NCBI GenBank assembly: GCA_963922205.1
Contig: CAWUHX010000127.1
Location: 1-64,000 of the forward strand
Direction: 5' to 3'
DNA: 64,000 bases
DNA from: Romanomermis culicivorax
Taxonomy: Eukaryota; Nematoda; Enoplea; Mermithida; Mermithidae
In this document: one piece after another, positions 30,150-53,408 of the stretch
Position numbering within the stretch: position 1 is the first letter of the stretch
How the letters are laid out: each line of letters opens with the position of its first letter
Notes under the pieces: model-generated
Told to the model about the DNA's origin: nothing
Database searches by the model: none
Seen by the model: the letters and a program-made list of their open reading frames with translations, nothing else
Position numbers and translations under genes: made by a program

Positions 30150-30626
30150 TGACAAAAAATTGGGAGTCAAGATCGTGATACAACTGCTGTGCTTTGGAAA
30201 GTTGGAGTCTCAAAATCAGGCGCATCGCTGGTCATTTGCTTAGCTTTTTCTGGGTAGAGCGAGTATTTTTTTAGCCGTGCGAAAATTTTTTTGGACATTT
30301 CTGGCACCGGACGGAAATTATTGTTAAAGGATTTATCGAGTTTAGTCATAGTTTACCGGTTAATCGATTCCTAAGTGGATATAGGATCTGGGGAATCTTC
30401 AAAGTTTTTAGGGACTATGATGAGATGTTGCCATTTATTGCTATCTCAACATATCCTTTGAAATTCAAGACAATGGGATGTGCCAGAAAATGTGTGCCAA
30501 TGATACATTGTTTGCCAGCATCATCATCAAGAATAACATATTTGAACGGACGCTCTCCAAGGCCTGATTCCATCGTAAACAGAACTGGACCATGAGCTTT
30601 AACAACAACTCCATCTGTGATACATT
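30150..30626 (-). pseudogene. Element E protease and downstream relic (minus strand)
   Basis: Read on the minus strand, the part nearest 30,626 encodes a degenerate retropepsin C-terminal half with a recognisable CIIGTHFLAHP motif, as in the Element A protease (IVGTDFLAHP). It continues past that motif into stop-riddled sequence down to about 30,150. The catalytic half lies on the other side of Element B at 46,705 onward, so Element B inserted in this domain. The frame across the junction is no longer consistent, showing earlier decay. Confidence 0.75.
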
Positions 30627-31127
30627 TGTCCCATGCTGCTCAATTTCTCCAACGTCACGTGATCCAAATCATGTCAACACTTTATTTTTTCATGTTTTGT
30701 TTATTACTTATTCATGTTTTCGTTTATTTTATTTCTACACATATATTTTGTGTTCGTTTTATATTTTTCATGCATTTCTATGTTTCGTTTTTGTTGTATT
30801 TTATTTCTTTATGCACACGGGCTACAGTAGGCCCTTTAGCTAAAAACTTCCGCCGGCCGTGCTCCATGAGCACATGGCTATTTTTGGTGCATTCCATGCA
30901 CCTCTTATCACCAAAAATTAGCGATGTTTTTGTTACGCAAAAACGACTAGCTAAGAAGTTTTAGCTAAAGACGCTCATATGCTTAGCATAGGCACTGCAG
31001 TCGGCCTCAATGCTAAACGCATGTGAACAAAAAATGTCTATGTGCACATAGGCATCTTCTGCATCGCGTCTAGCTGCAGAAGTTAGCTTGGACGCCGAGA
31101 AACTCCGCCCAAGCTGCAGCTGTAGCC

Positions 31128-31153
31128 AAACATGTCCTTAAAAGGACATGTTT
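31128..31153. other. 12-bp-arm palindrome in the Element B LTR
   Basis: AAACATGTCCTT and its exact complement separated by AA. It is conserved unchanged in the 3' LTR at 45813-45838. Role unknown; it could be a hairpin in RNA or a dyad protein site. Confidence 0.75.
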
Positions 31154-31524
31154 CTTTAATTTTTCACTCACTTTTGGGTTCACCAAGTTTCCATTTGGTT
31201 GTAACTCCGCATCCGCCGCCCCTTCAAATTTGCATATTTTTATATACATTCGTGTGCATCTGCTGCCTTATTCTCAAATAAATTTGCATAAATTTACACC
31301 CTTCCACTGCATCCGCCGCCTATCCATATACAGTACCCGCTGCCCATCAGTGCCAGGTGTCCGATCGCTCTGGATAGCAGAGAAACAGTCGAGAGGCGCC
31401 CCGATTGCCTATACCCCTCACTCAGGACTCGTGTGGATCGCATCCCCATTCCGTGCCAGAAGACCGAAAGTATCCCAGGGACCTGCCGCCCGTTTTTGTC
31501 GAATCGCTTGAGAAACCGGACTAG

Positions 31525-31595
31525 GTGAGTCTTCTCAGGGGATTATTGTTTATTGTGGGATATTTTTGGGGAACCCTTCTTAAGTCGGTTTCCCA
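31525..31595 (+). other. intron-like segment inside the Element B LTR
   Basis: GTGAGT donor at 31525 and a pyrimidine-rich GGTTTCCCAG acceptor ending at about 31595. This mirrors the arrangement in the Element A LTR. The donor may instead feed splicing to the envelope or ORF2 region. Confidence 0.4.
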
Positions 31596-32019
31596 GGTTT
31601 TCCCCAGATAAGTAGGGCTTCCACCTCTCAGGTTCGGGCTAAAAAGGGACTGTCTGGTTCATAATCGGGTCCCATAAATTAGGTCATTTTACGGGTGACC
31701 CTGTCCCCACTCTCACTGAGCAGGACTCAAGGATTGTCACACCTAGCCTGATGGCATTGTCCATTACCCTACAGTAAGACCCCAGGACAACACCAGAGAG
31801 TACCAGCTATAGGCCTCCTTATAGCCACCACTTGCTGGGTTAGGCCCCCAAACCCATCCAGGGAGCCTGGGGAAAATGCCAGTATCCATCAGGAGTCACA
31901 GCCTATTACTCACTGTGATAGGATCAATCTGATATGGTTCACCATCAATGTGACTGCTAAAACACGGTTCTACCTGATGTGATACCCAAACCTCCCCAGC
32001 TCCCTCGTTAAATGTGACA

Positions 32020-32570
32020 TAGCGAGGCTGGAAAATCGACCTTAAGTCTGGCACTCGCCCTTAAGTGCAAAACTTCACCTTTGGGTTGGAACTACCCCCA
32101 GGTCGGGTCAATTCCCATTTTAAGTCGGACAAGCCCCCTTAAAATCAGGTACTAACCATCCAATGAGTCGGAGATCCCCCCCCCCCCAATTCTGGTATAC
32201 TGCCTAATGGGTCGGGAATGTCCCTTATTTCGGATTCCCGCCACTGTAGGTCGGAAATTCCCCCTGAAATCGAGTGTTATTACTGTAAGTCGGAAATTTT
32301 CCCTTGACCTCGGGTGTAATTACTGTAAGACGGAAATCGCCCTTACGAGTGATCTAAATGTGATCTATATGTATATATCATTATCTCATGCGTGTGTATC
32401 GCCCCTATGATTAATAAATTCCCCCTGAGTCGAGTTATTTGTCCCCCGAGCCGAATTATATGCCCTCAGAGTCGAGTTAAATGTCCTCAGAGTCGAGTTA
32501 TTTGTCCCATAGAGTCAAATACCCTCAAAGTCGGGCCCCAGAGTTGAGTTATATATCGAGTATTCTGTAT
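32020..32570 (+). repeat. Element B leader: degenerate AAGTCGG and GAGTCGAG arrays
   Basis: Two consecutive families of short tandem units. The first contains (T)AAGTCGGA-type words with C-rich spacers (32,030-32,360). The second has about 22-bp units of the type CCTCAGAGTCGAGTTA (32,420-32,560). An 11-C run lies at about 32,176. Confidence 0.7.
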
Positions 32571-33217
32571 TTCTCCTCTGAATAATCCTGTATCTTCTAC
32601 ATACTTAATCTGTGTTGTAAACTCCTTCATTTTTTTCTCTTTTCTTTCTTTTGCCTTTCTCTACTTTTGGGTGGTATACTGTAACCCTCAGGTTGGGTGC
32701 TGTTACAGTACGCCTGTGTCCATTCCCGTACTGTATCTACAGTATACCCATACGCGGGTACTGGTATCACAGCTGTAGGGGTTTACGGCCTCTCCTGACT
32801 GTTGGTGGTCCATGACCCCATGATACAGTACACCCTCCACCTATGATTCTGGACGTCATACGTGGCTGGGATCTGTTAATTGTGTACAGTATTTTTGTAT
32901 TTCACCGGAAACTGTCAGAGTTGCTCACTTCTCCGGCCCAAAAATTTTACACCTACTGTTTACACCTTTAACACGCATATGTCCAAATCTCGTATTTTCT
33001 GCTTTTCTGTTATTTTTCTTCCATTTCTCTTCTTCCTCTGTCATCTAAGTGGTAACTCAAAAAGAAAAAAAAGAAAAAAAAGAAAAAAAATTTTCTGTTT
33101 TCTTACGCCACCGCTACAGTATGACACCCTTCTCTCTCTTTTTTTCATATCTACTTACTGTAAACTCTGTTCTCTTCTATTTTCGGGTTGTTGCATCTAG
33201 ACCATAGACTTTACGGG
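32571..33217. other. Element B leader, no ORF supported
   Basis: Several TACTGTA/TACAGTA palindromic words (about 32,655, 32,708, 32,731, 32,742, 32,825, 32,885) and an A-rich tract of AAAAAAG units near 33,060. The 106-codon frame at 32,880-33,200 is low-complexity and not called. Confidence 0.4.
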
Positions 33218-33930
33218 TCATGCTCTTTGACGTCAGCAATAACAACGTTACGTGTTGTTATGTGGTTCAGCCTCACAGATGCAACCACTGACGTCTGCAA
33301 CAGCCGCTTCACTTGCTGTTGCTTTAAGGGGTGGGTAGCCCTCGGGGTTCTACTCCTGACGTCAGCAAGGACAACATTACGTGTTGTTGCTCTAAGTTAA
33401 TACTCCTGCAGTACTGACTCCTGATGTCTACAATAGCTGAAGCTCACGTTGTTGCAGTAGGATTGGCTGGTCTCCTGCACCCCATCTGTGACGTCAGCAA
33501 TAGTGACGCAACGGGTCATTATTCAAAGATGTACAGGTCTTACGGATCCCATGTCTGACGTCTGCAACAACCGCATCTCATGTCATTGACTTAAGGTGTC
33601 GGACCCTCGGCTCCACCTTTTGACGTCAGCAACGGCAGCATCACGTGTTACTGTATACAGATAGTTGGCTTCAGGGCCCTATTGCTGACATCGGCAATGA
33701 CAATGTATCATGTTCTCACAGCAGGAATCGAGGTTACATGATCCTATTTCTGACGTCTGCAACGGTAACATTACGTGCTACTGCAGGAGTTTTGCTGGCC
33801 TTAGGCACTTACCCCTGGGGTCTGCAACTGCGACATGATACTTGAATACTCTTATCCCAGGCACCTGCAGTCAGCACCAAGGTCATGTGTTGGTTCATAC
33901 CCCCTAACTTTGACGTCAGCACCAGGTTAC
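33218..33930 (+). promoter_or_regulatory. 12-copy ~65-bp array carrying TGACGTCA-type sites
   Basis: TGACGTCA or close variants start at 33228, 33289, 33357, 33422, 33489, 33556, 33621, 33686, 33751, 33816, 33866 and 33911; spacing is 61-68 bp until the last two steps (50 and 45 bp). Many units continue GCAA, a CAACA/CAGCA-like word, then ACGTG. TGACGTCA is the known CREB/ATF palindrome. The position in an untranslated leader and the copy number recall the Su(Hw) array of Drosophila gypsy, which is analogy only. Confidence 0.8.
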
Positions 33931-35708
33931 TGTCGGTCCTTTGAGTATTCTACTTGAGTCGTAGGTGGTTGCTGGCGCATGGTCCTATCACCTACCACTC
34001 TTGTCAAGGGTTGGTGTGTGTCTGGGACTGATGCCTGGGAAACATCAGTCAACACACATACACCACCTGAGATGTTCTTTAGTCCGTGTTACTGATCAGG
34101 TTGTCCGCCCGGGTAGCGGCACTGTTGATCAGCACATGGCTGCCTTTAAGCTTTAACTGCAGGTTTGAACGAGTTACACTCGGCTTCAGCTGGGTTTGTT
34201 GTTTGACTCGTGTAGACAGTGGGCACTCGCAGTCGGTACTGCCTGTGTTTGGCGTCTGCAAGGGTTCAGCAGCCTTCTTGTAAATCTCTTATCTAAATTC
34301 ACTCATTCTCTTTCATCTCATCGAGCTGTCATACATAGATCTTCTTTAGTGTCCCGACCGTAGTGGTTCCCGAGGGACGGCGGCACAGCCTCCGGTTGGG
34401 CCTAGAGTGTATAGGACCCCCTGTCATATTTCCTTCACTTGAACGCCTTCGTTAACTGGCTTAATGATGTCTGCGCTATAGTGGCCACTGACCCAGAGTC
34501 CGCCTCCGCAGTCCACCCCTGTTAGTCATGTAATATAATAGGCACCGTTGAGTCCGCCTCAGCGAAGGTATTGAGTGCATAACTGGGTTCACCTCAGTTA
34601 TTTTACACTCAATAATTCACCCAGGGACACCTTGTACCCATGATCCCTTAGATGTTTTCGGGTGCGCCCTCAAAACATCCAGAGTAAATTCATCTTAACT
34701 GACTGAGTGTGTCAGAATAGCACCCTTGGTACCCGTGCTCTCTCTCTTCCACTGTGTGACCTGCGAGCCTCATTACATCTCAGTGATCGGCAACCCGGCC
34801 ACCAGCTGTATATAATACTCCTGGAGAGTGTCCATTCTGTTCGGAATGCGGGCTCCCATTTCGAACACGGCTGTAAGTTACTTGCGAATGTCGTCCAACA
34901 CGGAACCCCTGTATAGTCCATCACACTGTACAGAGATCCCAATTGCTCCTGGCGAGTGAGGCCCGCTGCGTAACTGCGCGACCCCTTTGCGTAACTGGGT
35001 TTGTAAATTAGTTTTGTCCCTATTTATTGCTCCCTTTTGAGTTCACTTTCAGTTGTCCACATCCTTTTCTCTTGATGCCACTTTATGCGCTACTCCTGGT
35101 GAGTAGGATCTTGCCGGCTACGAGTCCTCCTCGCCCCAAGGTTTGTAAACTAGTACAAACGGTTGAACCTCCAGGAAAAATCCCTCCTGAGCGGGTTTAT
35201 CCGTCACCTCATTTCTCGGCAGGAAAACCACCTTTTCTCTCTTCTTATCTCTCTTTCTCTCTCGGCTATTCTAATTGCCGGGTCCAGGCCCCAACTCTAC
35301 ATCCTTTTGGTCGGGATCGATTCCCCATATTTCAGGTCATGCCTATATCCATCACGGGCGACCAGATAAATTCCCTTCTGCATCACCCTGGTGTACTCTG
35401 ATCTTGCATCTTACAATCTTATTCCCATTCTAGCTCCATTTTCGTGGTCGCTAGTCTTAAGCTAAATCAAGTTCACGTCACAAACGCCGTCACCCACGCA
35501 TCTTTGGAATTTCACGCGCTCTTTCGCCGCGAATTCGGAAAAGTAGTACTCACTTTCACTTTACACAATAGAGACACCTCGACCTTCCTGTCGTCTAAGT
35601 ACCCAGCCTGTACAGACCAGTGAGCCGCTCTCTATTCAATTTGACTTAATTGCTTCACGGGCAAGAACGTCTGTTCTAACCACCTTACGGGAGAACGAAC
35701 CCTCGGAC
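33931..35708. other. Element B leader, remainder
   Basis: About 1.8 kb without a convincing coding region before the gag ATG. Small open frames (60-124 codons) have no motifs and lie in different frames. A TTGTAAACTAGTACAAAC partial palindrome lies near 35,145. Such a long leader is unusual and suggests splicing or internal initiation. Confidence 0.45.
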
Positions 35709-37448
35709 ATGAAGTCAGAAACTGATCTCCCTTCACAGATCGAAAACAAGGTCCAGGCAGCATTTGAGAATGCCCTTGGACCCCTCAACCAAAAGTTAGA
35801 GGCCATGAATGGTCGGAGGCACCCTCCCGTGTCCAGCTTTATGGCCCCTCCAACCTTCTCCGTTGCTTTTGGTGAGTCTATCACTGATTTTATGTCGCAT
35901 CTTACTCGTTTCTTTACACTCAGCAGCGGCACTCCACAACCTACCTGCTACGAAGAGTTTATGGCTTTTCTACGGAAAGATTTTCCGGTAGGACGCGACT
36001 CTGATCTGCATCAGCAGCTGATTCAAGATCGACTGCAGAAGCCGACCGAGTCCGCGATAGTCTACCTTGAGCACCTCAAGAGACTGTCCAGGGTAGCGTA
36101 TCCAGATCTCATGATGGATGTCAGAGACTCTATCATCAAACCTATCTTTCTGCGTGGATTGAAACCGGTCCTCCGAGATAGTATCAAGTTTAGGGAGTTT
36201 ACGACTCTTGAAGAGACACTCAAGGCAGCCTGTTACGCAGAATCCCAAATCTTCCGGGACGAGATTCGGTACACGGCACCATCTAACGCCATTTTCTCTT
36301 CAGAACCTAAACCTGCCAGATATAATCCCGATATGCCTAACAGAAGCGCTAACAGTCGTCAGAGCAACGCTCAAACGTCGTCATCCTCTGCCGATGAGGT
36401 TCGCCACTTGAAACAGGAGATGGCCAGGCTAAGGGCCCATGTAGCAAAGCTTACGGCCCAGCAACGTGCACCAGTGCCAATCCAGCAGACGCCGCCTTCA
36501 CAGCCGTCAACACCAAATCAGTCCGTCGGGCAACGCTCGTCGGGAGCACACCTTCAAACGTGCTCCTTCCATGGACTGTGTACACATAGCGATGCCAACT
36601 GTCGGGCCCAGCGTCCCACCGGTGCTGCTCCCAATAACAACACCGCTAACGGTGGTCGCTGTTATTTTTGCCGTACACGTGCCCACCCCACGGATGGATG
36701 TGATAGGCCATGCCCTCATTGTCATCAAGTGCAAGTGCACCGATCAACTGCCTGTCCGCAGCGCAATCCGGCAAACATGGGTGAGAATGACTACCAATAT
36801 ACTGGTTATTGTTCCCATGGGTCAAATGTGTATCATCATAAAAATAGTTATCACCCTCCTAACCGGATGGGGAACCAATATCAGCAGCCCATACGTCACA
36901 ACAACGGGGTTGGGGCTACCAATGGCCCTCCTCACCCAGATCCTCTTGATCTGGATGACAAGGCACTTGCTGAACACCTGACAGATCCTTCACAACAGTG
37001 TTATCATGTCTGCGTAATCAGTATTGGATTTTCAGCAGTCCATGCAGCTCAGGTACCCGTACCAATAAATGTATCGGACATACCGCTGCCGCCACCACCA
37101 CACAGGTATGCAATGCCGGTCACCATGGATCCCTCGACGACACCGCAGTTTGTTGGTCACGCTAACATCCTAGCATCCTATTGCATCCCAAAAACTACAA
37201 CTGTCGAGCCAGCTCCAGCCGCAAATACGACGTCTCCGGTGCCACTGGCCCGCATCGTCCCTCCAGGACCACCGCCGGCGATCCCCATGGATTCGGCTAT
37301 GGAAGTCCTCGACCAGGTCGAGCCGATGAACTTGTCAGGTATACTACCTTCCTCTTCCGGTGGTCCTAGAGAAGGAATCAGAAATCTATCTCAGTCTACG
37401 ACTCTATCGATTTCTTGTTCACAGCACCATCACCCGTCCAAGACGTGA
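35709..37448 (+). CDS. gag: Element B Gag (579 residues)
   Basis: Opens at ATG 35709 and is intact to TGA 37446-37448. Residues about 50-200 form the capsid-type region of retrotransposon Gag ([39 protein letters not shown]). Three zinc knuckles follow: a C-X2-H-X4-H-X4-C unit near 36,561, a classical C-X2-C-X4-H-X4-C near 36,661 and a C-X2-C-X5-H-X4-C just after it. The C-terminus is proline-rich. Gag would assemble the particle and package RNA. The stop overlaps the next ORF's ATG as TGATG, pointing to reinitiation or a regulated switch. Confidence 0.88.
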
Positions 37449-38161
37449 TGTTGGCCATCTGGTCAGTTGACCTGGCCAAGAAATACCGGCATTTGCCCTG
37501 GACTCTGCTCAATGAGCCATCGCATGTGGAAGCGCTCACGGCCGCCAACGTGGTGCTCGCGGCACCTGTATCAATGCGACTCTTACGACCCGACGTCGCC
37601 CGACGGGCACTCGAGTTAATTGCCAATGGGACTATCACAATCTCGCCCGTCGAGAAGTTCTTGTTGGATGGGGAGCCATCCTCGCCTTGGGTTGATGCCG
37701 TCCGCCGTGCAGTCGAACAGGCCAGTCGGATCCTCCTGCCTGCTGTCGCAGCTACACCACCGACAGCAGCGCCACCTGTTGCCGCTACTCCGCCAACAGA
37801 AATGGTCACTATTGCTTCCTCGCCTCCGGCCAAGGAACCAGCAACTGATCCCACACCGCCGGCACCAGCCCAAGATACATCGCCGGCACCAGCCCAAACC
37901 AAATCGCCGGCGCCAGCCCAAGAGACATCTCCGACCGCTGCGACCGAGTCGCCCGTCCTCGAACCCATGGCTGTCGATGAGATCTTACGTCCGGTTAGTG
38001 AAGATGTCAGCATTGTTGAGGAATCACCGTTCCCAAGGGCAGTCGCCCCATGGTCGCCAAAAGTCGGCATCCTCCGGGAAATCCACCCATGCGGTAGGTT
38101 GGTCCTTGATTTCCCCGGTCAGGAACCCATCTCCTCTGACAGCGACGAAGAAGAAATCTGA
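37448..38161 (+). CDS. Element B ORF2: unknown proline/alanine-rich acidic protein
   Basis: ATG at 37448 shares its first base with the gag stop (TGATG). 237 residues, intact. The first 100 residues look globular ([24 protein letters not shown]). The middle has PAPAQ-type repeats (three SPAPAQ-like units), and the end is acidic (SDSDEEEI). I recognise no family. The frame is also open upstream in the -1 phase relative to gag, so a frameshift fusion is an alternative to reinitiation. The ORF ends 28 nt before the envelope ATG. Confidence 0.65.
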
Positions 38162-38189
38162 CAATGCCCATCGGGCCAGATTTGTGAAA

Positions 38190-41100
38190 ATGTGTGAGCA
38201 CTTACAAACCACGTTTGTACAGTTGTCTTTGATAATAAAATTGACCATAGTAACATCACTGTTTCTAGGGGTGAGTTTGTCAGCACCGGCGGCTCAGTAT
38301 CAATTTTGTGGTCTCTCAAGAGGCGGACATCCACTTGAGTTACCCCAGCGTGTAGAGTGTAAACCACCGCAATCTTCATGGAGCCCATGGCGCATGAACG
38401 TTACGGTGTATGTTCCTAGCTCAGACCCGATTACAACCACAGCGTGGAAATGCACATTGCGCACCCGCAAAGTCTGCACCAACACTGGTTTCTTCAGCTC
38501 TAGGGGCATCACTGCAGACGTCATTACCACTCAGCACTTAGCGCCTGCGGCCTGCATGCTAGCACATTGCACTAAAATGTTTGTCTCACAAAAACTTGTG
38601 GGCATTCGCCCTGGCTTTTATAGCACAAACCAAACATTGGAAGTGATGTACAAATGGTGCTGCAGTGACGTCTGCAAGACAGTGACTAACCTCTTCATCA
38701 AGGAGGGACAAATCGCTTCATGGGATGGCACTACGGCACTTAGCACCTTAGGCGATGTAGGTGGATGCAGTCCCACTGCAGGTCAGTGCACTACTCTAGA
38801 CCGAGTCATTGTCTGGCCTGCGCAAAACTTCACGGCGCGCTTTCATTATCACCCCAAGGGAAATTACACTGCGTCCATGTCAGGGAACCAGGTCATCATC
38901 GATGATCTACAGGTTGCCCTAAAGATCCCGGGAAACTCCCGCGTCTTCCAACTGTGCCCAGAACTACGTTCCACCACAGTCCGGACGGATCAGGGTCTTC
39001 TCCTACGCATCCACGGGAGATACAATTTGACCCAAAACTTGTTCAGGCTGGCAATGGACACACGTCCCGATCCTGTCAATGCCAAACTGAACTATCTGGC
39101 TCAGCAGATCAAGGAGTCAGAAATTAACGGTTTCCGGTTCACATGGCTTGAGCTCTGCTCTCACGCTCAATGCTACCTTGATCTGACTTGGCAGTTGCTT
39201 CGCTTCGACCCTACATTGGGTGCCCGGGCATTCCTCCAGAGGAATGACCTGCCCGTGGATTTCACAGGTGATGCACTGACAATATGGCCATGTCAGAAGG
39301 TCAACGCCACCTACGTCTACCACTCGTACCGGGTGGGAAACGTTTGCTACAAGTACTTACCTGTACAGGTCAGCGGCACCATCTATTTTGCCACCCCGGG
39401 TGGTCCAGATCTCATTAAATCTAGCCCAATTGTGCCCTGTTATCACCACTTTACAGGGATTTTCCAAAATCGCTCGTGCTGGTCTACTGAGTCTGGCACG
39501 GTCCATGTGAGCCACATCCCACTGGAACTCTTCTGGAAGCAGCGTTTCAACATCACTCACTTTGATGCACCTATGCTCTTCCATGACCAGTTGGCGATGA
39601 CCCCTTCAAACTTTGCCTTCTTTAAACAGTACGTTTACAAGACTGAGCAAATTGAAGCGGTACTAAACTGGCTGGTAAACTTTACCGCTGGTCTATCCCT
39701 GCAACCAGACACCATCTACCAGGCATTTGCAGGGGTAGGAACCGACATCAAGGCCTCCCTGGAAGGTGTCGGTTTGGCAGCAAACCATGTTATTACTGGC
39801 CAACAACACACCCTCGTCCAGGGCTTGCATGCTGTCCTGAGCAGGCCGGTTCAGTTGACCTTTAACACCCTAATTACCCTGATGGTGCTGATCCGTGTCG
39901 GATACCTTGCCTATCTTGGTGTATCTTATTATCTCAGCTACCGTCTGCGGAACAAACAGGTACAAATTGTTAGCCGTTTCTCCCCGTTGGGTCTTTACCA
40001 CAAAGTCCAATGCTGGATTGGTTTTCACTACGTGCAAAACAACATGCCATCCCAACTCGATCGAATCACACTGTGTTTCGTCGTGCTGCTGGATAACAAG
40101 GAAACTCCTGCTTTCCTTGACACGGGTTGCCCCCGCACTATCATTAGCCAACGTCTTCACAAGGCCTTGGCTAAAGAAAGTCTGAAGGCGGTCATGGCGT
40201 TCCAGCAACATCACGACTTTAACCCATTGATGAGCATCAATGGTAAAGCCGTTCATACCATCCTTTTGGGACCATATGAAATCATGTTGCCCGGAAACCG
40301 CCAGCCGAACACACGGATTGATGTACATCTCCATGTGTGCAAGACTACGTCTCCCTTCTGGGCACCTGTTGACTTTATACTCCGACTGGACTTCTTAGAA
40401 CAGTTCAAGAACATTATGTTTGACTACCAACGTAATGTTTGTCGGCTGGACGCCGTAGAATTGCCCCTCCTGCTGACCATGCCAGAGATTGACCAGATCG
40501 ACCCCTGGTGGGAGAACACCCATTCTCTATCAAGAAACTCACACAGGTCGGGATCACGATCGCGGTCCGGGGCTTCATCCATCTCTCGGCCACACTCACG
40601 GGCCTCCTCAGTTGCCTCATCACGTGGGTCAACCAGGGGATACGGGCCTTCCTCCAGATGGGCAAGTCGTCATTCATCGACCTTGCACGGGTCAGGTTGC
40701 CCTCGACCTCCGCCTGGAAATTCTCCAGTTACGCTAGAAAAAGGCCGATTCCGTGAGCCCAGTGATTCAGATGCCCCAGTATCACCCGTGCCGAACGGGC
40801 CACCGCTATCAGACACCGAGATTGAATCACTAGGAGCTACTCAGAGCCCAAGGGACCACTCCGACCATGTACTCACAGTACAGGACGAGTCAACCCTTCT
40901 AAATGACCCGGACCCCTCTGTCGGATACGCTCTAGTAGGTCTACTACGTTGTACGGGACTGCCGATTCCAAAGCGGTCCAGTAAGACTAAACACATTAGT
41001 GGTGCCACCACACCTGATTCCGGTCATGTGGTCTCTGCTTTCTACCCAAATGATATTCGGACACCCCATATCAAAGTTCTCCTCAACAACTGGGTAGAAG

Positions 41101-42086
41101 CAAAGGCACTGGTCGACACAGGAGCTGTCTTCTCACTCCTGGACCACAAGTTAGCGGCCAAGCTGCCCAACTTGACACTTACACAAACCAGGGCCCGTCC
41201 TATCACAGCCAATGGGTCCCCGATCCCACTGCTAGGAGCAGCCTACATCACGGTAACAGTGGCTGATGTCTCTGAACGGATTCAGGTCCAAATAAAAGAG
41301 AACTGCTCAGCTGAACTGGTCCTGGGAACAAACTTCCTCGGCCGGTTCAATTGTGTCAGCTTGAACTGGGAGGAATCCTTCCTCCAGTTCAAGGAGAGTA
41401 AAATCCCCTGTGATGGTCTCATCCACAGTCCACCTTCTGCTCGCAGCACCTTGCCCCTGAAGGACTTGGTGATCCTGGAGCCCCACTCCCTGACACGATT
41501 CACTGTACCTGTACCGCCAATCTATATGACAGTACCTGAGGTGGCCTTCTTCCCAAAGCACCTCGGGGGATCTCACGGAAACGTATATTTTGCTGGGAGC
41601 CTGAGTAGCATGACCAACGGTCACATACCACTTCAAGTAGTGAACCCGAATACTCATTCCGTGGTTCTCTACCCGCACATGACCATCGGTCATGTGCAGA
41701 TGCACAGTGAGCCTTCACGGGGGTCACCGGTCGACTCAGACACCGTCCTCGATCGTCAATGGGTCGAGGCCAATGCTGTAATCTCACCGGACATCTCCCC
41801 TCGGGACCGGGCAGCATTACTCGACCTACTGGTTGCATACACCAACCTTTATGCTCTTGATGAAAAGGACACAGGTTCCACTGATCTCGTCCAGCACAAA
41901 ATCAGCACGGGTGATGCCCGCCCAGTCCCCCATTTCCCTTACCGGTCCTCACCTAAGGAAAAGGATCTCATCATGCAGGAGGTCAAGGCCGTCCAGGACA
42001 AAGGTATTATCCGGCCGAGCACGTCACCATGGGCCACTAATACTGTCCTGGTGCGCAAGAAGAACGGTTCTCACCATATGTGTTGA
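38190..42086 (+). CDS. Element B envelope-like glycoprotein fused to two retropepsin-like domains and the start of RT
   Basis: ATG 38190 opens about 1,298 residues. Residues about 10-31 are a hydrophobic signal-peptide-like stretch. A Cys-rich ectodomain follows with about ten N-X-S/T sites, then a hydrophobic membrane segment near residues 555-583 (LITLMVLIRVGYLAYLG). The ectodomain pattern recalls glycoproteins of chu/mivirus type seen in some retroelements, a tentative assignment. In frame after the membrane segment are a retropepsin-like domain with FLDTGC (Asp codon 40119), a Ser/Arg-rich linker (40,520-40,700), a second retropepsin-like domain with LVDTGAVFSLL (Asp codon 41115) and LGTNFLGRF, and the RT N-terminus. 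The frame ends at TGA 42084-42086, where RT continues in another frame. Pol would thus be made as part of a membrane-anchored polyprotein, unless splicing separates them. This copy is broken at the RT. Confidence 0.75.
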   Translation: MCEHLQTTFVQLSLIIKLTIVTSLFLGVSLSAPAAQYQFCGLSRGGHPLELPQRVECKPPQSSWSPWRMNVTVYVPSSDPITTTAWKCTLRTRKVCTNTGFFSSRGITADVITTQHLAPAACMLAHCTKMFVSQKLVGIRPGFYSTNQTLEVMYKWCCSDVCKTVTNLFIKEGQIASWDGTTALSTLGDVGGCSPTAGQCTTLDRVIVWPAQNFTARFHYHPKGNYTASMSGNQVIIDDLQVALKIPGNSRVFQLCPELRSTTVRTDQGLLLRIHGRYNLTQNLFRLAMDTRPDPVNAKLNYLAQQIKESEINGFRFTWLELCSHAQCYLDLTWQLLRFDPTLGARAFLQRNDLPVDFTGDALTIWPCQKVNATYVYHSYRVGNVCYKYLPVQVSGTIYFATPGGPDLIKSSPIVPCYHHFTGIFQNRSCWSTESGTVHVSHIPLELFWKQRFNITHFDAPMLFHDQLAMTPSNFAFFKQYVYKTEQIEAVLNWLVNFTAGLSLQPDTIYQAFAGVGTDIKASLEGVGLAANHVITGQQHTLVQGLHAVLSRPVQLTFNTLITLMVLIRVGYLAYLGVSYYLSYRLRNKQVQIVSRFSPLGLYHKVQCWIGFHYVQNNMPSQLDRITLCFVVLLDNKETPAFLDTGCPRTIISQRLHKALAKESLKAVMAFQQHHDFNPLMSINGKAVHTILLGPYEIMLPGNRQPNTRIDVHLHVCKTTSPFWAPVDFILRLDFLEQFKNIMFDYQRNVCRLDAVELPLLLTMPEIDQIDPWWENTHSLSRNSHRSGSRSRSGASSISRPHSRASSVASSRGSTRGYGPSSRWASRHSSTLHGSGCPRPPPGNSPVTLEKGRFREPSDSDAPVSPVPNGPPLSDTEIESLGATQSPRDHSDHVLTVQDESTLLNDPDPSVGYALVGLLRCTGLPIPKRSSKTKHISGATTPDSGHVVSAFYPNDIRTPHIKVLLNNWVEAKALVDTGAVFSLLDHKLAAKLPNLTLTQTRARPITANGSPIPLLGAAYITVTVADVSERIQVQIKENCSAELVLGTNFLGRFNCVSLNWEESFLQFKESKIPCDGLIHSPPSARSTLPLKDLVILEPHSLTRFTVPVPPIYMTVPEVAFFPKHLGGSHGNVYFAGSLSSMTNGHIPLQVVNPNTHSVVLYPHMTIGHVQMHSEPSRGSPVDSDTVLDRQWVEANAVISPDISPRDRAALLDLLVAYTNLYALDEKDTGSTDLVQHKISTGDARPVPHFPYRSSPKEKDLIMQEVKAVQDKGIIRPSTSPWATNTVLVRKKNGSHHMC

Positions 42087-44715
42087 CTTCTGTGGTCTTA
42101 ACGAGGTCATAAAAAAGGATGTCTACCCTCTCCCACGGATAGATGACATCCTTGACACACTCAAGGGTATGAAGTACTTCACTACCCTTGATCAGGCTAA
42201 CGCTTATTAGTCAATCCCGATTGCCGAGGCAGATAAAGAAAAGACAGCATTCAATGCGCCCATTGGACTTTACGAATTCAATTACTTGCCTTTCGGTCTG
42301 TGCAACGCACCAGGGACATTTCGACGCCTCATGGACCTCCTCCTTACAGGAATCCAATGGCGCACGGTTCTGACCTATCTCGATGACATTTTGGTGTTCG
42401 GGAACTCTCACACCCAAATGCTTGAGCGCCTGGCAGATGTGTTCACCCGTCTTCACCAGGGTGGAATGAAGCTCAGACTGAGCAAGTGCAAATTCTCGCA
42501 CTCGGAGGTAGAGTACCTAGGCTATCGCATCTCACAGAGCGGCCTACAACCCGACCAAGCCAAGCTGGCCACCGTCCAAAATCTACCCATTCCACAAAAC
42601 GCCAAAGACATCAAGTCCTTCCTCAGCCTCGTGTCTTACTACAAGCGTTTCATCCCTGGTTGTGCCCGGCCCAGTGAGCCACTAACCAAGCTCTTACTGA
42701 AGGAAACCACTTTCCAGTGGTCAAAACCTCAGCAAGAGGCGTTTGACGAACTCCGCCGATTGCTGACCAACCCTCCTATCCTGTGCCATCCGGACTTCTC
42801 GAAATCCTTTATCCTTCAAACTGATGCAAGTATTTCAGGGATAGGAGCGGTTCTAAGCCAGTTAGACGAATTTGGATACGACCATCCTGTTGCGTACGCC
42901 AGCCGAGGGTTAACAGCGGCCGAGAAAAACTATTCCATCACAGAACTGGAAACTCTCGCTGTTGTCCATTTTGTCAAGCACTTTCGGCCATACCTCTTCC
43001 AGCACGAGGTGGTCATTCAGACTGACCATACAGCAGTCAGAGCAGTGTTGGAGAAGCCTAACCCCTCTGCTCGGATCGCTCGATGGGGACTCGCGCTCGC
43101 CGAATTCAAACTGACAATTCCTCCGCGAAAAGGTCAGTCTAATGGTAATGCTGATGAATTATCACACCTGCCGGATCCTAACTCCCTCACCGGTCAGAGT
43201 ATTGATGATACTCCCCTTTACAGACCTGAGGGACATGTTATGATGATCACGGATGGTGTGCAGCACCTGGCGAGATCAAGAACCTTGATCGATGGTGTGC
43301 AGCACCTGGCGCGATCAAATATTTCAGTACAGATCACTGCTGGTGCGGAGCGCCCGGTACGATCAGAGACTTATGCCGAGATATCGGTTGGTGCGCAGCA
43401 CCCCGACCTTCTCGCTGCTCAGCTGGAGGATCCGGAGCTAGCCGACATCATTCGCTCTCTTAAGCCCCTGGGCGACCAGAATGATGTGCGAGGCTACCAT
43501 CTGTTGGATGACGTTCTTCAGAAATGGACAGGGGAGTTCAACAAGATTGTCATACCCAGATCCATGGTTACTACCATTATCCGGGCTCATCATGATGACA
43601 TCTTAGCTGGACACTTTGGTGCTAAACGTACTGCGCGGCTCATTGCTCGCAGATACCACTGGCCTTCCCTCAGTCGGGATGTCAAGTCCTTCTGTCAGCG
43701 GTGTGACCTTTGCCAACGGAATAAGCCCGCTCGACAGAAAACCACTGCGACCCTGAAACCCATCACCATCACAGGACCGTTTCATCGGGTAGGTGTCGAC
43801 TGTATGGGACCAATGACCACTAGTGAAGCTGGCAACCGTTTCATCGTAGTCTTCATTGACTACTTTATGAAATGGGTCGAGGCTTTTGCTACTCTGGATA
43901 TCACTGCCCACACCATAGCCCGACTGTTTGTAAGGCAAATTGTCTGCCGGCACGGGGCACCGCAGATTCTTCAGTCCGATTGTGGCACTGATTTCACATC
44001 AAAACTGATGACTGAGATCACTGCGATCTGCGCAACGAAGAAGATCCACTCTACCGCCTATCATCCAATGACCAACAGTGAGGTGGAAAGAGCTAATCAA
44101 ATGCTGGCCACACGGCTAGGTATGTATGTTCACCACGGACATACAGATTGGGATGAACACCTACCATACACTGTGTTTGCCGTCAATATCAGCATGAATG
44201 AGTCAACAGGGTACTCGCCCTTTGAACTCATGTACGGTCGCACACCCATGCTCCCTGTTGATGCCGCGCTCTCATTCAACCCTCTAGCCCATATCATTAA
44301 TGTTTCCTCATATGATATGGAGGTCAAACGTCATTTCAGGAATGCGTTAACCTTAATCCAGAGTCGGATTGAGAAAGCACAGGAGGCCTATGCACCGTCC
44401 TACGACCGGAGGGTGCAAGATGTCTCGTACAAAGTAGGGGATCAGGTGCTCAAACTGTGCACTTCCAGCAAACATGGACTCACTCCTAAATTGCTGCCCA
44501 TCTACGATGGGCCCTATCTTTTAACAAGTGTGGCATATCCCAATGACACACTTCGTCTCGAGACAGATCAGGAAGACACTGTTTCAACCAGCTTCGACTT
44601 TACGTGTCCCCTGACCCGCCGAGTGAAGCAGAGGATACACCTCCCACTTCACAGGCAGCGGATACGGCACCCTTGTTGTTTCCTTCAACAAGTTGGGATT
44701 TTACACCAAATTTGA
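42087..44715 (+). pseudogene. pol: Element B RT, RNase H and integrase (broken)
   Basis: RT resumes one frame over with VDFCGLNEV. TAG at 42208-42210 interrupts the conserved TLDQANAY-xx-IPI region. The rest is open for 809 codons from 42,286. Features: PFGLCNAPGTFRRLM, catalytic YLDD near 42,379, RNase H with LQTDAS, TELET and QTDHTAVR, and integrase with GHFGAKRT, CQRCDLCQ, VDCMGPM, SDCGTDF and HPMTNSEVERANQ (D, D, E present). Between RNase H and integrase is a repeated HLARS segment. The two lesions make this copy inactive. Confidence 0.88.
43249..43405 (+). repeat. coding tandem repeat between RNase H and integrase
   Basis: Two near-identical units of GATGGTGTGCAGCACCTGGC (39-bp period) encode DGVQHLARS twice, followed by two more diverged relatives (GAERPVRS, GAQHPDLL). 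Confidence 0.75.
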
Positions 44716-45311
44716 TTGACCCACATCTTGATGCAGAGGTCCCCGACCACTAATTCAAGATGTCTTCTCTTCATTGTCCCTGCTTACGGACGAGGACGTC
44801 CTTTTTCGAAGGACCACCGTGCCCCTCACGAAGTATCCACTCTTATCCATGCTGGATCTTAGTGGATAGAAGAGAATGTGTAGCAACCAGAGCATCACAT
44901 CTTAGGCGCATCCCCCCGATAGCCTACACCTCACTGGGTACAGCCCCTGCGATAACCCAATATCCTACACCTCACTGGGTGCATCCCCTGCGATAACCCG
45001 ATAATCTGTACCTCACTTTGCGCATCCTCTGCGATAGCCTACATCTCGCCCTGAAAATTTTTCTTTTCTGTGTTCTAGACTTTCGCACAGGATATCCAAT
45101 GTCTGCAACTTCATGCATCAATGATTTCCGGTTACCATACTGTCGAACGAATTACAATCAGAGAAGGCTCCATCCGCCAACAACCCAACGGACCTATTCG
45201 ACCACCCGCCGTCACAACTTGGAATGACTAACGACCAACCACGGACACGCCGCACAAACCTCACCACTAACCGCAGCAAGCACGAGGACGCCCTTTTTCG
45301 AAGGATCGCCG
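44716..45311 (+). other. Element B 3' non-coding region with tandem repeats
   Basis: About 3.5 units of a 44-50 bp repeat (CCTACACCTCACTGGGTGCA, then CCCCTGCGATAACCC) cover about 44,905-45,050. A 34-bp sequence with CCTTTTTCGAAGGA occurs at about 44,789 and again at about 45,283, the latter running into the LTR start. No obvious polypurine tract precedes the LTR. Confidence 0.6.
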
Positions 45312-46704
45312 TGTCACGTGCCGCTCAATTTCTCCAACGTCACGTGATCCAAATCATGTCAACACTTTATTTTTTCATGTTTTGTTTATTACTTATTCAT
45401 GTTTTCGTTTATTTTATTTCTACACATATATTTTGTGTTTGTTTTATATTTTTCATGCATTTCTTTGTTTCCTTTTTGTTGTATTTTATTTCTTTATGCA
45501 TGCGGGCTACAGTAGGCCCTTTAGCTAAAAACTTCCACCAGCCGTGCTCCACGAGCACATGGCTATTTTTGGTGCATTCCATGCACCTCTTATCACCAAA
45601 AATTAGCGATGTTTTTGTTACGCAAAAACGACTAGCTAAGAAGTTTTAGCTAAAGACGCTCATATGCATAGCATAGGCACTGCAGTCGGCCTCAATGCTA
45701 AACGCATGTGAACGAAAAATGTCTATGTGCACATAGGCATCTTCTGCATCGCGTCTAGCTGCAGAAGTTAGCTTGGACGCTGAGAAACTCCGCCCAAGCT
45801 GCAGCTGTAGCCAAACATGTCCTTAAAAGGACATGTTTCTTTAATTTTTCACTCACTTTTGGGTTCACCAAGTTTCCATTCGGTTGTAACTCCGCATCCG
45901 CCGCCCCTTCAAATTTGCATATTTTTATATACATTCGTGTGCATCTGCTGCCTTATTCTCAAATAAATTTGCATAAATTTACACCCTTCCACTGCATCCG
46001 CCGCCTATCCATATACAGTACCCGCTGCCCATCAGTGCCAGGTGTCCGATTGCTCCGGTTAGCAGAGAAACAGTCGAGAGGCGCCCTGATTGCCTATACC
46101 CGTCACTCAGGACTCGTGTGGATCGCATCCCCGTTCCGTGCCAGAAGACCAAAAGTATCCCAGGGACCTGCCGCCCGTTTTCGTTGAATCACTTGAGAAA
46201 CCGGACTAGGTGAGTCTTCTCAGGGGATTATTGTCTATTGTGGGATATTTTTGGGGAACCCTTCTTAAGTCGGTTTCCCAGGTTTTCCCCAGATAAGTAG
46301 GGCTTCCACCTCTCAGGTTCGGGCTAAAAAGGGACTGTCTGGTTCATAATCGGGTCCCACAAATTAGGTCATTTTACGGGTGACCCTGTCCCCACTCTCA
46401 CTGAGCAGGACTCGGGGATTGTCACACCTAGCCTGGCGGCATTGTCCATTACCCTACAGTAAGACCCCAGGACAACACCAGAGAGTACCAGCTATAGGCC
46501 TCCCTATAGCCACCACTCGCCGGGTTAGGCCCCCAAACCCATCCAGGGAGCCTGGGGAAAATGCCAGTATCCATCAGGAGTCACAGTCTATTACTCACTG
46601 TAATAGGATCAATCTGATATGGTTCACCATCAATGTGACTGCTAAAACACAGTTCTACCTGATGTTATACCCAAACCTCCCCAGCTTCCTCGATAAACGT
46701 GACA
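45312..46704 (+). repeat. Element B 3' LTR
   Basis: Starts TGTCACGTGC and ends GTGACA, a perfect 6-bp inverted terminus. The same length as the 5' LTR with no net indel. Followed by CATT, the target duplication. Confidence 0.93.
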
Positions 46705-48160
46705 CATTTATGACCGTAGACAGGAAGGGAGTATCGATTTCATCACAAGCTCTTTTCACTAAGCCAGATGATAATACAGAACACTGTGCACTAGTATTGA
46801 TGAGATCACAGTAATTTTAATGGGGACAAGACAAGCAGTGGTGGGCAGGTAATTCTTGACATATTCATCCATGGGGCAGGTGTGAGTTTACCAATCTGGA
46901 ATATTGCTGGTCATTCGATCCGGGGGTCTTGTCCTGAGATGTTTTCCATGTCCAAACTAGTAGTACCGGGGAAAAATAAAGTAGAATTTGCAGAGGTATC
47001 AGTTTTGGGGGTAGTTCGGATCAAATTAGCAGAAGGGGGTTGGGAAATATTGTGGGAAATGATAGTTGACTCAGAAGTACTACTAGAAGCAACTCCTGGA
47101 GACTGGGGAGAAGGTAAAAAAAGGTTAAATGGTTGTCTCTGTTAAACGTCCATTGTTAATGGGAAAAGTAGACCAGGGGTTGGTAGGGATAAATCTGGTA
47201 TTCAATGGGAAAGTTGGCTGAATCATATTGAAGGTTTGAAGTAACAGCCTTACAAGTTTCAGCATCCTGACCTGTACAATTGCAATAATACAAACCATAA
47301 CTGCCATGGTAGTAAGAGTTTCCTCTGTTACTGTAGCTGCCTTTGTTGTTTCTCCAATTTGGGTAGATGCAAATATTGTGACTGGGGTTGTAATGGTTTT
47401 GATATCTGTTACCTGTATAGGGGACCAATTGGTGATCAAAATTTGGTTGGGTTTAGGGATTAACACTTTTTAAAAAATTTACAATCTGCAGTGTTGTGTG
47501 TGTTGTTTCTATGAGTTTCACACCAAGGACAGGTGGATTGATTAGATAAAGGTCAGTTTCAGTCGGGACTTTGAGAGTGATCATTGATCATTTTGGGAGT
47601 GGAAATCAGGGGAATCATCAGAATCTAAATGATTGTGGCTTTGGGATGCCAAAAAATCATGGTTGGCAGAATGATCTCAGTTCTGTTAGTCAGAATGTGG
47701 GAAAGAGAGGGATGAGTGTCAGAAGTGAAAAGGGGTTGTGCAACTTTTTGAACACCATCTTCAATTTCCTGTAGAGGGTCGTTAATTATAACTACAGGGA
47801 CAGTATTTTCACTAAAAGGGACACAAAATTTATTGCAATGGAAGTTTTGGGATTTATATGAGGGGAGTGGGAAATAGGGAGACTTGTTCTATCATAACAT
47901 ATTTAACTGAGGGGAAGTTGAACATGGTTGTTAAAAATTTGGGTCTGCTTGATTGACAAGAATGGGTCACTATGCAGCACTTATCTTGGCTTTTGTCACA
48001 TCAAGCATTTTTCTCACTTTTAAAACAGAGGTAGCAAGTTGTTGGACAGTGGATAACTCTTGGGAATCATCACCAATAGACATTTGGCAGAAAATTGGAA
48101 TTTTCATCTCAAATTTTTTAATAACCTTTTGGTGATGAAATTTTTGGTTTTGATGGTTTG
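46705..48160 (-). pseudogene. Element E gag and protease relic (minus strand)
   Basis: On the minus strand, reading from 48,160 downward: degenerate gag sequence, then a zinc knuckle at about 47,461-47,510 with WCETH, NNTHNTADC spacing (C-X2-H-X4-H-X4-C), then an N/Y-rich segment, and finally LINTSAQCS at the protease active site (Asp changed to Asn) near 46,800, ending at the Element B junction. The knuckle closely resembles those of Elements A and D. Many stops and shifts show it is old. Confidence 0.75.
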
Positions 48161-48213
48161 GTCACCAATGTCATATGCCCAAATCCACATAGCAGGCATG
48201 TCAGGTAAATATC

Positions 48214-48286
48214 GCTCAGTGAGAGGCTCGAACCCTTGGCCTTCTGCATACAAGGCAGATAAGCCATCCAACTGCACTAACCAAGC
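48214..48286 (-). tRNA. tRNA-Thr(UGU)-like sequence, possible pseudogene or SINE head
   Basis: 73 nt on the minus strand. The 7-bp acceptor stem pairs fully, with two G-T wobbles. The anticodon stem TCTGC/GCAGA pairs perfectly around a loop giving anticodon TGT. Box A (TAGTGCAGTTGG) and box B (GGTTCGAGCC) are near consensus. The T stem has one mismatch and the D stem is weak with one mismatch. No encoded CCA and no long T terminator is seen directly downstream. Confidence 0.65.
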
Positions 48287-51399: not shown

Positions 51400-51690
51400 T
51401 CCCCACCGAAAATCAAGCAAAAAAGATTCAGCAGGGTCGCTTTGAAGACCAATATTATCGAATTCTTGCTGGCCTAAGACCCATGTGGAAACAACTGTCA
51501 AAATTATTGATTCCACGGCCAGACACCACGGAACAAACTGCCCAGCCACCGCCTGTCACCACCCCTACGGCTCAGGATAACTTAGATCTTATGGCAGCCC
51601 AAATAGAAAAGATGATGATTGTTCTTGGCCAGATGCAAAATCCGATCATCGCACAACAGCAAAAAATTACAGATTTAGAAACAGGTAATT
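51400..51690 (+). pseudogene. Element C gag fragment upstream of Element D
   Basis: Open frame with [13 protein letters not shown] followed by a P/T-rich stretch and a helical [15 protein letters not shown] segment. It stops making sense at about 51,690, where minus-strand Element D begins. Confidence 0.45.
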
Positions 51691-52421
51691 TTCTGGTGTG
51701 TACATCTAATGTACATTTCTGGCACATTCTCCTCTTTCTCCATGGCACAGTTATGTAGGCCACACAACTTCATCTCCGTCATTGGTTCTTGCTGTACACT
51801 ATTGATACTGCTAGTCCGCGGTTGGTCTGTCTGCCCGGAGGCTTGGGACGGACTAACTACCTTTTGCGGAGTCAATAGGGTATTTGAACTCTGATTTGCG
51901 ACTACTGGTTGCTGGTCCATTAGATTTGGTGCTGGTAACATCAGCTGGGTGGTAGCCTGTAACAGTCTCATCTGCTCCCTGAGCTTCTTCAACTTTACGT
52001 ATTCCTGGAACTTGGCATATTCTTGCAAATTTTCTGCCTCGTCCTCGGGAAACGAAACTTGATAAGCTCCCCTTTCACCTTCGTTACCAAAACCTCCTCT
52101 GTTTCCTCCGTAATTTCCTCTGAAATTACCTCTGAAATTTCCTCTACCTCTGAAATTTCCAAAACTTCCTCTAGGATTTCCTCTTCCAAAGCCTCTTCCA
52201 CTATTTCCACCCCTTCCACGATTTTGTATACCCTTATAAAAATTCAAGGTTCTACAGTCAACTGTGTTGTGGGTGTTGTTTTTGTGGTAAGTACACCATT
52301 TTTGCTGCTGAACCTCTTGTTGACTTTTCGTTTTCACTTTATCAACTTTCTGAGTTAAAGCAGTTATGGCTTCCTCTTGAGCTTTGGTCGAGTTCCTAAT
52401 CTCTTCATAACATTGTGTCAT
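51691..52421 (-). pseudogene. gag: Element D gag C-terminal part: zinc knuckle and RGG region
   Basis: Minus-strand frame with WCTYHKNNTHNTVDC (C-X2-H-X4-H-X4-C), then many RGN/GRG repeats and a K/L/Q-rich tail (YAKFQEYVKLKKLREQ). The same order is seen in Element A gag. It would bind RNA. The end at about 51,690 is an element truncation, not a natural stop. Confidence 0.8.
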
Positions 52422-52613
52422 TTAAATAAATTCTTTAGATAAAGCCACCATGAGGGAGTCCTTTTTTGGCTCCTCAACAGGCTGTTGCCGAGGCATTATG
52501 GCCTGTTGAGGAGGTACTTCAAGTACTTCATCATCTGCTATATCTATCAATTTATTTTGCGAAGATTGCATTGGAGTTTGCCTTTCTGTGTTTGGTCTTC
52601 TAAAGTCCTTATT

Positions 52614-53072
52614 TCATTTTTGGGCGCTTTCATAAGGTCTTTGGATTACATTCACATCGGCTTGCTGCTCCTCTGCAATTTCTGTCTGTGCCGTGTTTAT
52701 CATCATGGGCTGCTCTCTTGGCCCAAAGGTTCTAATCACATTCCTGTACTTTAACTCTATCTCATAGACTGCCTGCGAAAGATCATACCAATTCTTGAAT
52801 TTCGCTATGTCTTTCTGCAGTTCTAATTGATAAGTTAAAGAACTTCTATAGAAAAAGATTTCAATGATTACTTTATTTTTAAACTCTTTGGTTTCACTCT
52901 GGTAAATGAGATTCACATGTGCTCTAACCCTTTTCAAGAATTTGGTTGCTGCTTCGTCCGGTTCCTGTTTAATATCCAATAAATCTCGTCTGAGCATGTT
53001 CAAGTTACAGTCTGGAGCACAATAATTCAAAATCTTGTCTCGGGCTCGCCTCTTCTTGATAGGTTCATCCAC
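52614..53072 (-). pseudogene. gag: Element D gag capsid part
   Basis: Contains FLKRVRAHVNLIY, WYDLSQAVYEIELKYRN and NTAQTEIAEEQQ, aligning with FLKRVSILVELV and WYDLAVEVHDIERRYRN of Element A. It is separated from the knuckle part by stops and from the N-terminal part by a frame change. Confidence 0.78.
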
Positions 53073-53329
53073 AATGGGATCTTGAATATTTTATCTTCAT
53101 TCGACGATAATAAGGCATCGTCATCCTCCCTTTTGACAGGGGATGAGGTCGTAGGTCGGTTGCCTTCCTTTTCCACCGATAAAGGCCTATGATTTGAGCA
53201 ATTATCCTCTTCACCTGAAGTTTCGGCTGAAGTTAGGACAATTAACTTTTCTGCATCACGGGCCTTTTTTCTGGGTGGTGTTCTGGGCAAACCCGAACTC
53301 TTGAGGCCACCTAGGTTGTCTTTATTCAT
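53027..53329 (-). pseudogene. gag: Element D gag N-terminal part
   Basis: ATG on the minus strand at 53329. About 90 codons of hydrophilic sequence with PPRKKARDAEKL and an SAETSGEEDN acidic part, then a frame break into the capsid part. It corresponds in position to the Element A gag start. Confidence 0.6.
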
Positions 53330-53408
53330 TTTAAAGCCTCCCAATTCTCTGTAAAAATCGATAGGTTTTTTGACTCCTTGAGTTTGCCTCTGATTTTCTG
53401 TTACTTTG

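What the first reader, a model, noticed from the sequence alone, without database searches (positions are those of the whole stretch)
38190..42086. Envelope-like glycoprotein placed before and in frame with protease-RT
One frame encodes a signal-peptide-like start, a Cys-rich and glycosylation-rich ectodomain, a membrane segment, then retropepsin-like domains and RT. Errantiviruses and BEL/Pao viruses place env 3' of pol. The order gag-env-pro-pol with env and pol in one polyprotein is not one I know. It would tether pol to membranes or require a new cleavage or splicing scheme.
Basis: partly seen in the sequence, partly recalled or inferred. Interest (0 to 1): 0.88.

Follow-up and report, generated by a model that had tools for sequence, protein, structure and literature searches.

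The report
Retroelement with envelope before polymerase genes
A virus-like jumping element in this genome carries a cell-entry-type surface protein, related to those of some RNA viruses, placed before and joined in one reading frame to its protease and polymerase genes, an order not found in the papers searched; only one copy could be examined.

Summary
A complete LTR element lies at 30627-46704 (two 1393-nt LTRs, 97.06% identical, TG..CA ends, target duplication CATT). Its order is gag, an unknown 237-aa ORF, then one open frame from ATG 38190: hydrophobic start, Cys- and sequon-rich ectodomain, membrane segment, a weakly supported retropepsin-like domain 1, Ser/Arg-rich linker, a clear retropepsin domain 2, start of RT. 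RT, RNase H and integrase follow after a frame break and a stop inside RT, so this copy is broken. The ectodomain passes Pfam's cut-off for PF24664, fusion glycoproteins of Monjiviricetes (E 6e-11). No envelope gene was recognised 3' of pol.

Papers seen put env 3' of pol in fly errantiviruses and in Roo, Tas and Cer-7; a 2023 survey found no clear capture of Jingchuvirales glycoproteins by Gypsy elements. Loss of one stop codon between env and protease since insertion has a chance of 2-3%, so the fused frame was probably in the parent copy.

Best reading: Pol is made as the cytosolic extension of membrane-anchored Env and cut free by protease. Pol from a spliced RNA is the main rival.

The parts
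30623..30626 (.). target site duplication CATT, left
   Evidence: same 4 bases follow the 3' LTR
30627..32019 (+). 5' LTR, 1393 nt, ends TGTC...GACA
   Evidence: 97.06% identical to the 3' LTR, no gaps, 41 differences
32020..35708 (+). long leader without a coding assignment
   Evidence: apart from the gag frame no ORF above 129 aa; 35012-35398 gives no Pfam match
35709..37448 (+). gag: capsid-like (weak) and two zinc knuckles
   Evidence: Ty3_capsid E 0.009, below cut-off; CX2CX4HX4C and CX2CX5HX4C
37448..38161 (+). ORF2, 237 aa, Pro-rich, acidic end, unknown; its ATG overlaps the gag stop (TGATG)
   Evidence: no Pfam match; codon score prefers this frame in windows 37450-37900
38190..38280 (+). 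signal-peptide-like start of the env frame
   Evidence: hydropathy 2.07 at 38223-38279
38253..39854 (+). env ectodomain, Cys- and sequon-rich
   Evidence: no RXXR, RX(K/R)R or KXXR pattern in the env part
39075..39488 (+). stretch matching PF24664 Monjiviricetes_fusion (profile 311-443 of 653); BDV_G overlaps weakly
   Evidence: E 6.8e-11 and 5.8e-11; BDV_G E 0.016 and 0.014, below cut-off
39855..39935 (+). membrane segment followed by basic residues
39936..40043 (+). env tail / junction to protease, open in frame
40044..40490 (+). retropepsin-like stretch 1, weakly supported (DTG; ILRLDFL in place of the usual ILG)
40500..40859 (+). Ser/Arg/Pro-rich linker (29 S, 14 R, 15 P of 120)
41025..41399 (+). 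retropepsin domain 2 (DTG, LVLGTNFL)
   Evidence: PF13975 E 3e-9, above cut-off
41900..42086 (+). start of RT in the env frame; frame break follows (broken in this copy)
   Evidence: limits by eye
42211..44715 (+). rest of RT, RNase H, integrase with GPY motif
   Evidence: RVT_1 1.4e-20, RT_RNaseH 1.8e-35, Integrase_H2C2 3.7e-22, rve 1.7e-6 (below cut-off); motif by eye
45312..46704 (+). 3' LTR
46705..46708 (.). target site duplication CATT, right

Best explanation
This is an old, broken insertion of a Ty3/gypsy-type endogenous retroelement that carries a fusion glycoprotein gene of the Monjiviricetes kind (the class of chuvirus and bornavirus relatives). Unlike the cases in the papers read, the gene sits between the gag block and pro-pol, not 3' of pol. 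Shown by sequence: the complete LTR unit, the order gag-ORF2-env-pro1-linker-pro2-RT-RH-IN, and one open frame across env and protease. Inferred: Env enters the ER by its signal peptide, its membrane segment stops transfer, and what follows (protease onward) is made on the cytosolic side. Pol is thus first made as a C-terminal extension of Env at the membrane. A retropepsin then cuts it free, or some translation starts at the internal ATG 40044 and gives Pol alone.
For: Complete insertion with matching LTRs and a target duplication. Env identity above Pfam's cut-off. Hydrophobic start, then a part holding all 9 sequons found between 38190 and the membrane segment, then a membrane segment with basic residues after it, which puts the protease side in the cytosol (topology inferred). 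No stop in frame 0 over about 59 codons between membrane segment and first DTG (chance about 0.06), and codon score prefers frame 0 there. LTR divergence K 0.030 gives 2-3% for loss of one stop codon by substitution since insertion. No env gene recognised 3' of integrase.
Against: One copy only, broken in RT, so the parent may also have been defective. Frame 1 is also stop-free across the junction. The 2-3% does not cover a small deletion or insertion; the LTRs show none, but RT has a frame break. Codon score does not favour the env frame in the first 500 nt of env or in the linker. Stretch 1 is only weakly a retropepsin and lacks the usual Gly of the ILG motif (motif recalled). A fusion would make Env and Pol in equal amounts unless something limits Pol. 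How ribosomes reach ATG 38190 is not shown: a short reading frame starts at ATG 38164 just before it. No transcript, cleavage or topology data.
Confidence: 0.5

Rival explanations
1. Same element and order, but Env and Pol are made apart: a spliced RNA for Env, and a second spliced RNA that joins an upstream exon to an acceptor at the end of env (for example 39937) and gives Pol alone, as foamy viruses do for Pol. The shared frame is then of no use.
For: Foamy virus Pol comes from its own spliced RNA and fly errantivirus Env from a spliced RNA (passages read in PMC7828637 and PMC12992720). A simple site scan has strong donors in the LTR (31525) and leader (35099), and fair acceptors 48 nt before env ATG (38142) and at the end of the membrane segment (39937). 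The 3.7-kb leader invites splicing.
Against: The two acceptors tie with 23 others in a list cut at the best 30 of 830 AG sites, and 5 score higher, so their positions could be chance (matrices recalled). No RNA data.
Confidence: 0.3
2. The fusion belongs to this copy alone: a lost stop, a small deletion or a recombination during reverse transcription joined env to pro, and the family has them apart.
For: The copy is broken elsewhere (frame break and stop in RT). Only one copy seen. Retroelements recombine in reverse transcription (recalled). Codon score changes frame preference in the linker.
Against: LTRs differ at 3% without gaps; loss of a given stop since insertion has a chance of 2-3%. 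No break in base composition (49.2-53.5% GC in the five 800-nt windows from 38627 to 42626). The gene order itself would still stand.
Confidence: 0.15
3. The glycoprotein gene is a passenger: a separate endogenous viral gene that landed inside a gypsy element and plays no part in it.
For: Jingchuvirales glycoprotein genes are widespread in arthropod genomes, often beside Gypsy fragments (PMC10084718, passages and discussion read). Codon score does not favour the env frame in the first 500 nt of env.
Against: It has start, membrane segment and tail and runs in frame into the protease; from 38800 on its codon score agrees with gag and pol. No poly(A) or duplication was seen by eye in the short stretches printed at its edges, which is not a systematic search.
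Confidence: 0.05

Closest known systems
Errantiviruses / insect endogenous retroviruses (gypsy, ZAM)
   Same: Ty3/gypsy-type element with an envelope gene
   Different: env is downstream of gag and pol, F-type, and made from spliced RNA (PMC12992720, passages); here env is before pro-pol and matches another glycoprotein family
Anakin (BEL/Pao element with chuvirus glycoprotein, mosquitoes)
   Same: captured glycoprotein of the chuvirus kind inside an LTR unit
   Different: Anakin is BEL/Pao (PMC7642597, passages); here pol has gypsy-type domains and a GPY motif, and env is before pol
TelKA elements of bdelloid rotifers
   Same: LTR element with a fusion glycoprotein from negative-strand RNA viruses
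   Different: paramyxovirus F type, carried as ORF3 beside gag and pol as ORF1 and ORF2 (PMC5408684, passages)
Foamy viruses
   Same: Pol may be made apart from Gag; the stretch 41787-41963 matches the end of the Spuma_A9PTase profile just above its cut-off (E 9.7e-5)
   Different: Pol has its own spliced RNA and is not fused to Env (PMC7828637, passages); gag-pol-env order (recalled)
Cer1 of C. elegans
   Same: gypsy element with an extra protein

Membership tests
Ty3/gypsy (Metaviridae) | Pol domain order PR-RT-RH-IN | tested here: met
   PF13975, RVT_1, RT_RNaseH, Integrase_H2C2, rve in that order (rve below cut-off; RT broken)
Ty3/gypsy (Metaviridae) | LTRs with TG..CA ends and 4-6 bp target duplication | tested here: met
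   TGTC..GACA, CATT duplicated; rule as stated in PMC12440569
Ty3/gypsy (Metaviridae) | GPF/Y motif of integrase | tested here: met
   LLPIYDGPYLL in the translation (read by eye); PMC12440569 calls it a hallmark of Metaviridae/Gypsy, Retroviridae and two other groups, so it is not exclusive
Ty3/gypsy (Metaviridae) | RT phylogeny within Metaviridae | not tested
   no reference elements could be fetched; RT/RH is 37% identical over 326 columns to a second gypsy-like element in the window
Errantivirus | env 3' of pol, F-type glycoprotein | tested here: not met
Anakin / BEL-Pao with chuvirus glycoprotein | BEL/Pao pol | tested here: not met
   no BEL-type Pfam model among the 6 families matched by 42211-44715 (which models are BEL's is recalled)
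Monjiviricetes fusion glycoproteins (PF24664) | score above Pfam's gathering cut-off | tested here: met
   41.3 and 41.5 bits against 27, but over 133 of 653 profile positions only
Monjiviricetes fusion glycoproteins (PF24664) | class III fusion fold (proposed for bornavirus G) | tested here: inconclusive
   single-sequence AlphaFold2 model, mean pLDDT 33, not usable
Foamy-type Pol expression | Pol from a spliced RNA | not testable with these tools
   no RNA data; site scan inconclusive

The most novel reading that the evidence does not exclude
A lineage of env-bearing gypsy elements makes Pol as the cytosolic tail of its fusogen: the glycoprotein's signal peptide and membrane anchor deliver protease, RT and integrase to the budding membrane, replacing Gag-Pol fusion as the way to package Pol, with the first of two tandem retropepsin-like domains perhaps serving the Env-Pol cut.
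Probability: 0.3. Interest if true: 0.88.

Novelty: new variant of a known kind. Interest (0 to 1): 0.7.

Why it matters
The passages read place env genes downstream of pol in errantiviruses and in Roo, Tas and Cer-7, and Pol reaches particles as Gag-Pol (recalled) or, in foamy viruses, alone. An env gene before and in frame with pro-pol would show that this order is not fixed and would suggest a third way to bring Pol into particles, through the membrane anchor of the fusogen. It would also be a Gypsy element with a glycoprotein kind for which a 2023 survey found no clear Gypsy capture (PMC10084718).

Tried and rejected
Own-genome search: the genome search was busy or out of reach in all 13 tries, so no other copies. 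Relatives: no confirmed hit in IMG/VR with 4 pieces, in the prokaryote genomes with 2 pieces, or in phage records with one env piece. These collections are viral and prokaryotic, so this says little about animals. No second copy of gag, ORF2, env or stretch 1 in the window by tblastn at E 0.01; RH-IN finds the two other gypsy-like elements.

Structure: env model with mean pLDDT 33, not searched further. Model of retropepsin-like stretch 1 from three window sequences, mean pLDDT 52.7; of 149 PDB fold matches at E 10 or better none reached 0.001, and none of the 50 listed is a retropepsin by its title, so no support from fold. Env against PDB sequences: 1 match at E 0.39, ignored. The two retropepsin-like stretches give no meaningful BLASTP match to each other (E 32), so a recent duplication is not supported.

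Considered: Troyka elements (PMC12440569, parts 1-3 of 5 read) rejected, since they have CG..CG ends and no env. Cer1 CERV rejected by position. Zebrafish ERV paper PMC8672886 and ant EVE paper PMC6540820 (passages) gave no such gene order. Host could not be named: the 6 flank ORFs that I scanned, of the longer list, gave no Pfam match above its cut-off, and one tRNA-Thr was found.
Full report
What is there. The window holds a complete LTR element at 30627-46704. Its LTRs (30627-32019, 45312-46704) are 1393 nt each, 97.06% identical without gaps, with TGTC..GACA ends and a 4-base duplication CATT at both flanks. They differ at 41 of 1393 sites, 33 of them transitions, K2P 0.030. The finding lies in the middle of this unit.

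Gene order. After a 3.7-kb leader in which no ORF above 129 aa lies apart from the gag frame comes gag (first ATG 35709, stop 37446-37448), with a CX2CX4HX4C and a CX2CX5HX4C knuckle and a weak Ty3_capsid match, E 0.009, below cut-off. The gag stop overlaps the ATG of ORF2 (TGATG). ORF2 (37448-38161, 237 aa) has no Pfam match. The env frame starts at ATG 38190, 28 nt after the ORF2 stop; a short frame from ATG 38164 lies between. A codon-score scan (180-nt windows, trained on gag and the 3' part of pol) prefers the ORF2 frame in the windows at 37450-37900 and the env frame at 38800-40300 and 40750-41950. Against the reading, it prefers other frames at 38200, 38350 and 38500, ties at 38650, and prefers other frames at 40450 and 40600, in the Ser/Arg-rich linker. 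From 42100 a third frame is preferred, in line with a frame break in RT near 42060-42090; a stop at 42208-42210 follows. So this copy cannot make an intact RT. The only ORF of 100 aa or more that starts between integrase and the 3' LTR, 45125-45649, runs into the LTR and has no Pfam match.

Envelope. Residues 296-433 of the env part match PF24664, Monjiviricetes_fusion, at 41 bits against a cut-off of 27 (E 6.8e-11 and 5.8e-11), and BDV_G weakly over part of the same stretch (E 0.016 and 0.014, below cut-off). The match covers 133 of 653 profile positions. A computational study argues that bornavirus G is a class III fusion protein (PMC2753318, abstract seen); whether this protein folds that way is untested here, because the single-sequence model was useless (mean pLDDT 33). 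Composition agrees: 9 sequons against 3.1 in shuffles, P 0.0013; 18 Cys in 536 residues. No RXXR, RX(K/R)R or KXXR pattern was found in the env part.

Protease. Two retropepsin-like stretches follow the membrane segment. The second, 41025-41399, is clear: PF13975 E 3e-9 over the whole profile; its best PDB chain is named Ubiquitin family protein (E 0.0015), and retroviral-like aspartic protease 1 follows at E 0.079. The first, 40044-40490, begins at an ATG and is weaker: PF13975 E 0.024, below cut-off. Its best PDB matches are covalent-dimer HIV-1 protease chains at E 3.9e-5, where the match can count twice; the 99-residue chains give E 0.26 or worse and DDI1 chains E 0.023. The two share the DTG and a few columns but no BLASTP similarity (E 32). 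The first has ILRLDFL where the usual motif has ILG (recalled), so it may be weak or inactive, or this may be a mutation of this copy.

Is the fusion real? The junction from membrane segment to first DTG has no stop in frame 0 over about 59 codons, chance about 0.06, but frame 1 is also open there, so this alone is weak. Stronger is the age argument: with K 0.030 between LTRs, the chance that a given stop codon was lost by substitution after insertion is 2.1-3.3%. A small deletion or insertion is not in that number; the LTRs show none, RT has a frame break. The expected number of new stops in the env-pro frame is 1.8, chance of none 0.16, so its openness fits a fairly young copy without selection. 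Hence the parent copy most likely had the fused frame; whether the family has it is unknown.

How it may work. A hydrophobic start, a sequon-rich part, a membrane segment and basic residues give a type I protein, with protease and RT on the cytosolic side (inferred). An Env-Pol chain is thus possible without new topology, and retropepsin could release Pol. Access to ATG 38190 may come by reinitiation (TGATG at the gag end, short spacing at the ORF2 end) or by a spliced RNA. A simple splice-site scan (matrices recalled) found strong donors at 31525 and 35099 and fair acceptors at 38142 and 39937, but 23 other acceptors in the list of 30 score the same, so it does not decide.

Literature. Ten searches of the open library were used. 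[quoted passage not shown] Roo, Tas and Cer-7: envelope-like protein downstream of the polyprotein; Anakin: BEL/Pao with chuvirus glycoprotein (PMC7642597, passages). A 2023 survey reports no clear capture of Jingchuvirales glycoproteins by Gypsy elements (PMC10084718, passages and the discussion section). Searches for 'between gag and pol', 'gag-env-pol' (none), 'upstream of pol' and captured envelope genes showed no such order in titles and abstract starts; most listed papers were not opened.

Limits. One copy; no relatives; no host name. 

Noticed in passing
939-15604: A second large LTR element (LTR pieces of 432 and 190 nt, 95.8 and 96.8% identical) with gypsy-type pro-RT-RH and integrase, and further long ORFs 3' of integrase (9636-11003, 11149-13509) without Pfam match; 9636-11003 is weakly similar (E 0.005) to an ORF of a third element that has a weak exonuclease match. 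Bdelloid LTR elements are reported with DEDDy exonuclease ORFs (PMC5408684, passages).
   Followed up: partly
51675-63418: A third, degraded gypsy-like region; ORF 59899-60438 has a weak PF01612 exonuclease match (E 0.0059, below cut-off).
   Followed up: partly
37446-37450: gag stop and ORF2 start overlap as TGATG, a form used for stop-start reinitiation in some viruses and retroelements (recalled); by a simple estimate 1 in 16 by chance for a TGA stop.
   Followed up: partly
40044-41399: Two dissimilar retropepsin-like stretches in tandem, the first weak, parted by a Ser/Arg/Pro-rich linker.
   Followed up: partly
45272-45311: No clear polypurine tract just before the 3' LTR, and no primer-binding site directly after the 5' LTR was recognised by eye.
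   Followed up: no
48213-48286: tRNA-Thr (TGT) on the - strand 1.5 kb after the element.
   Followed up: no
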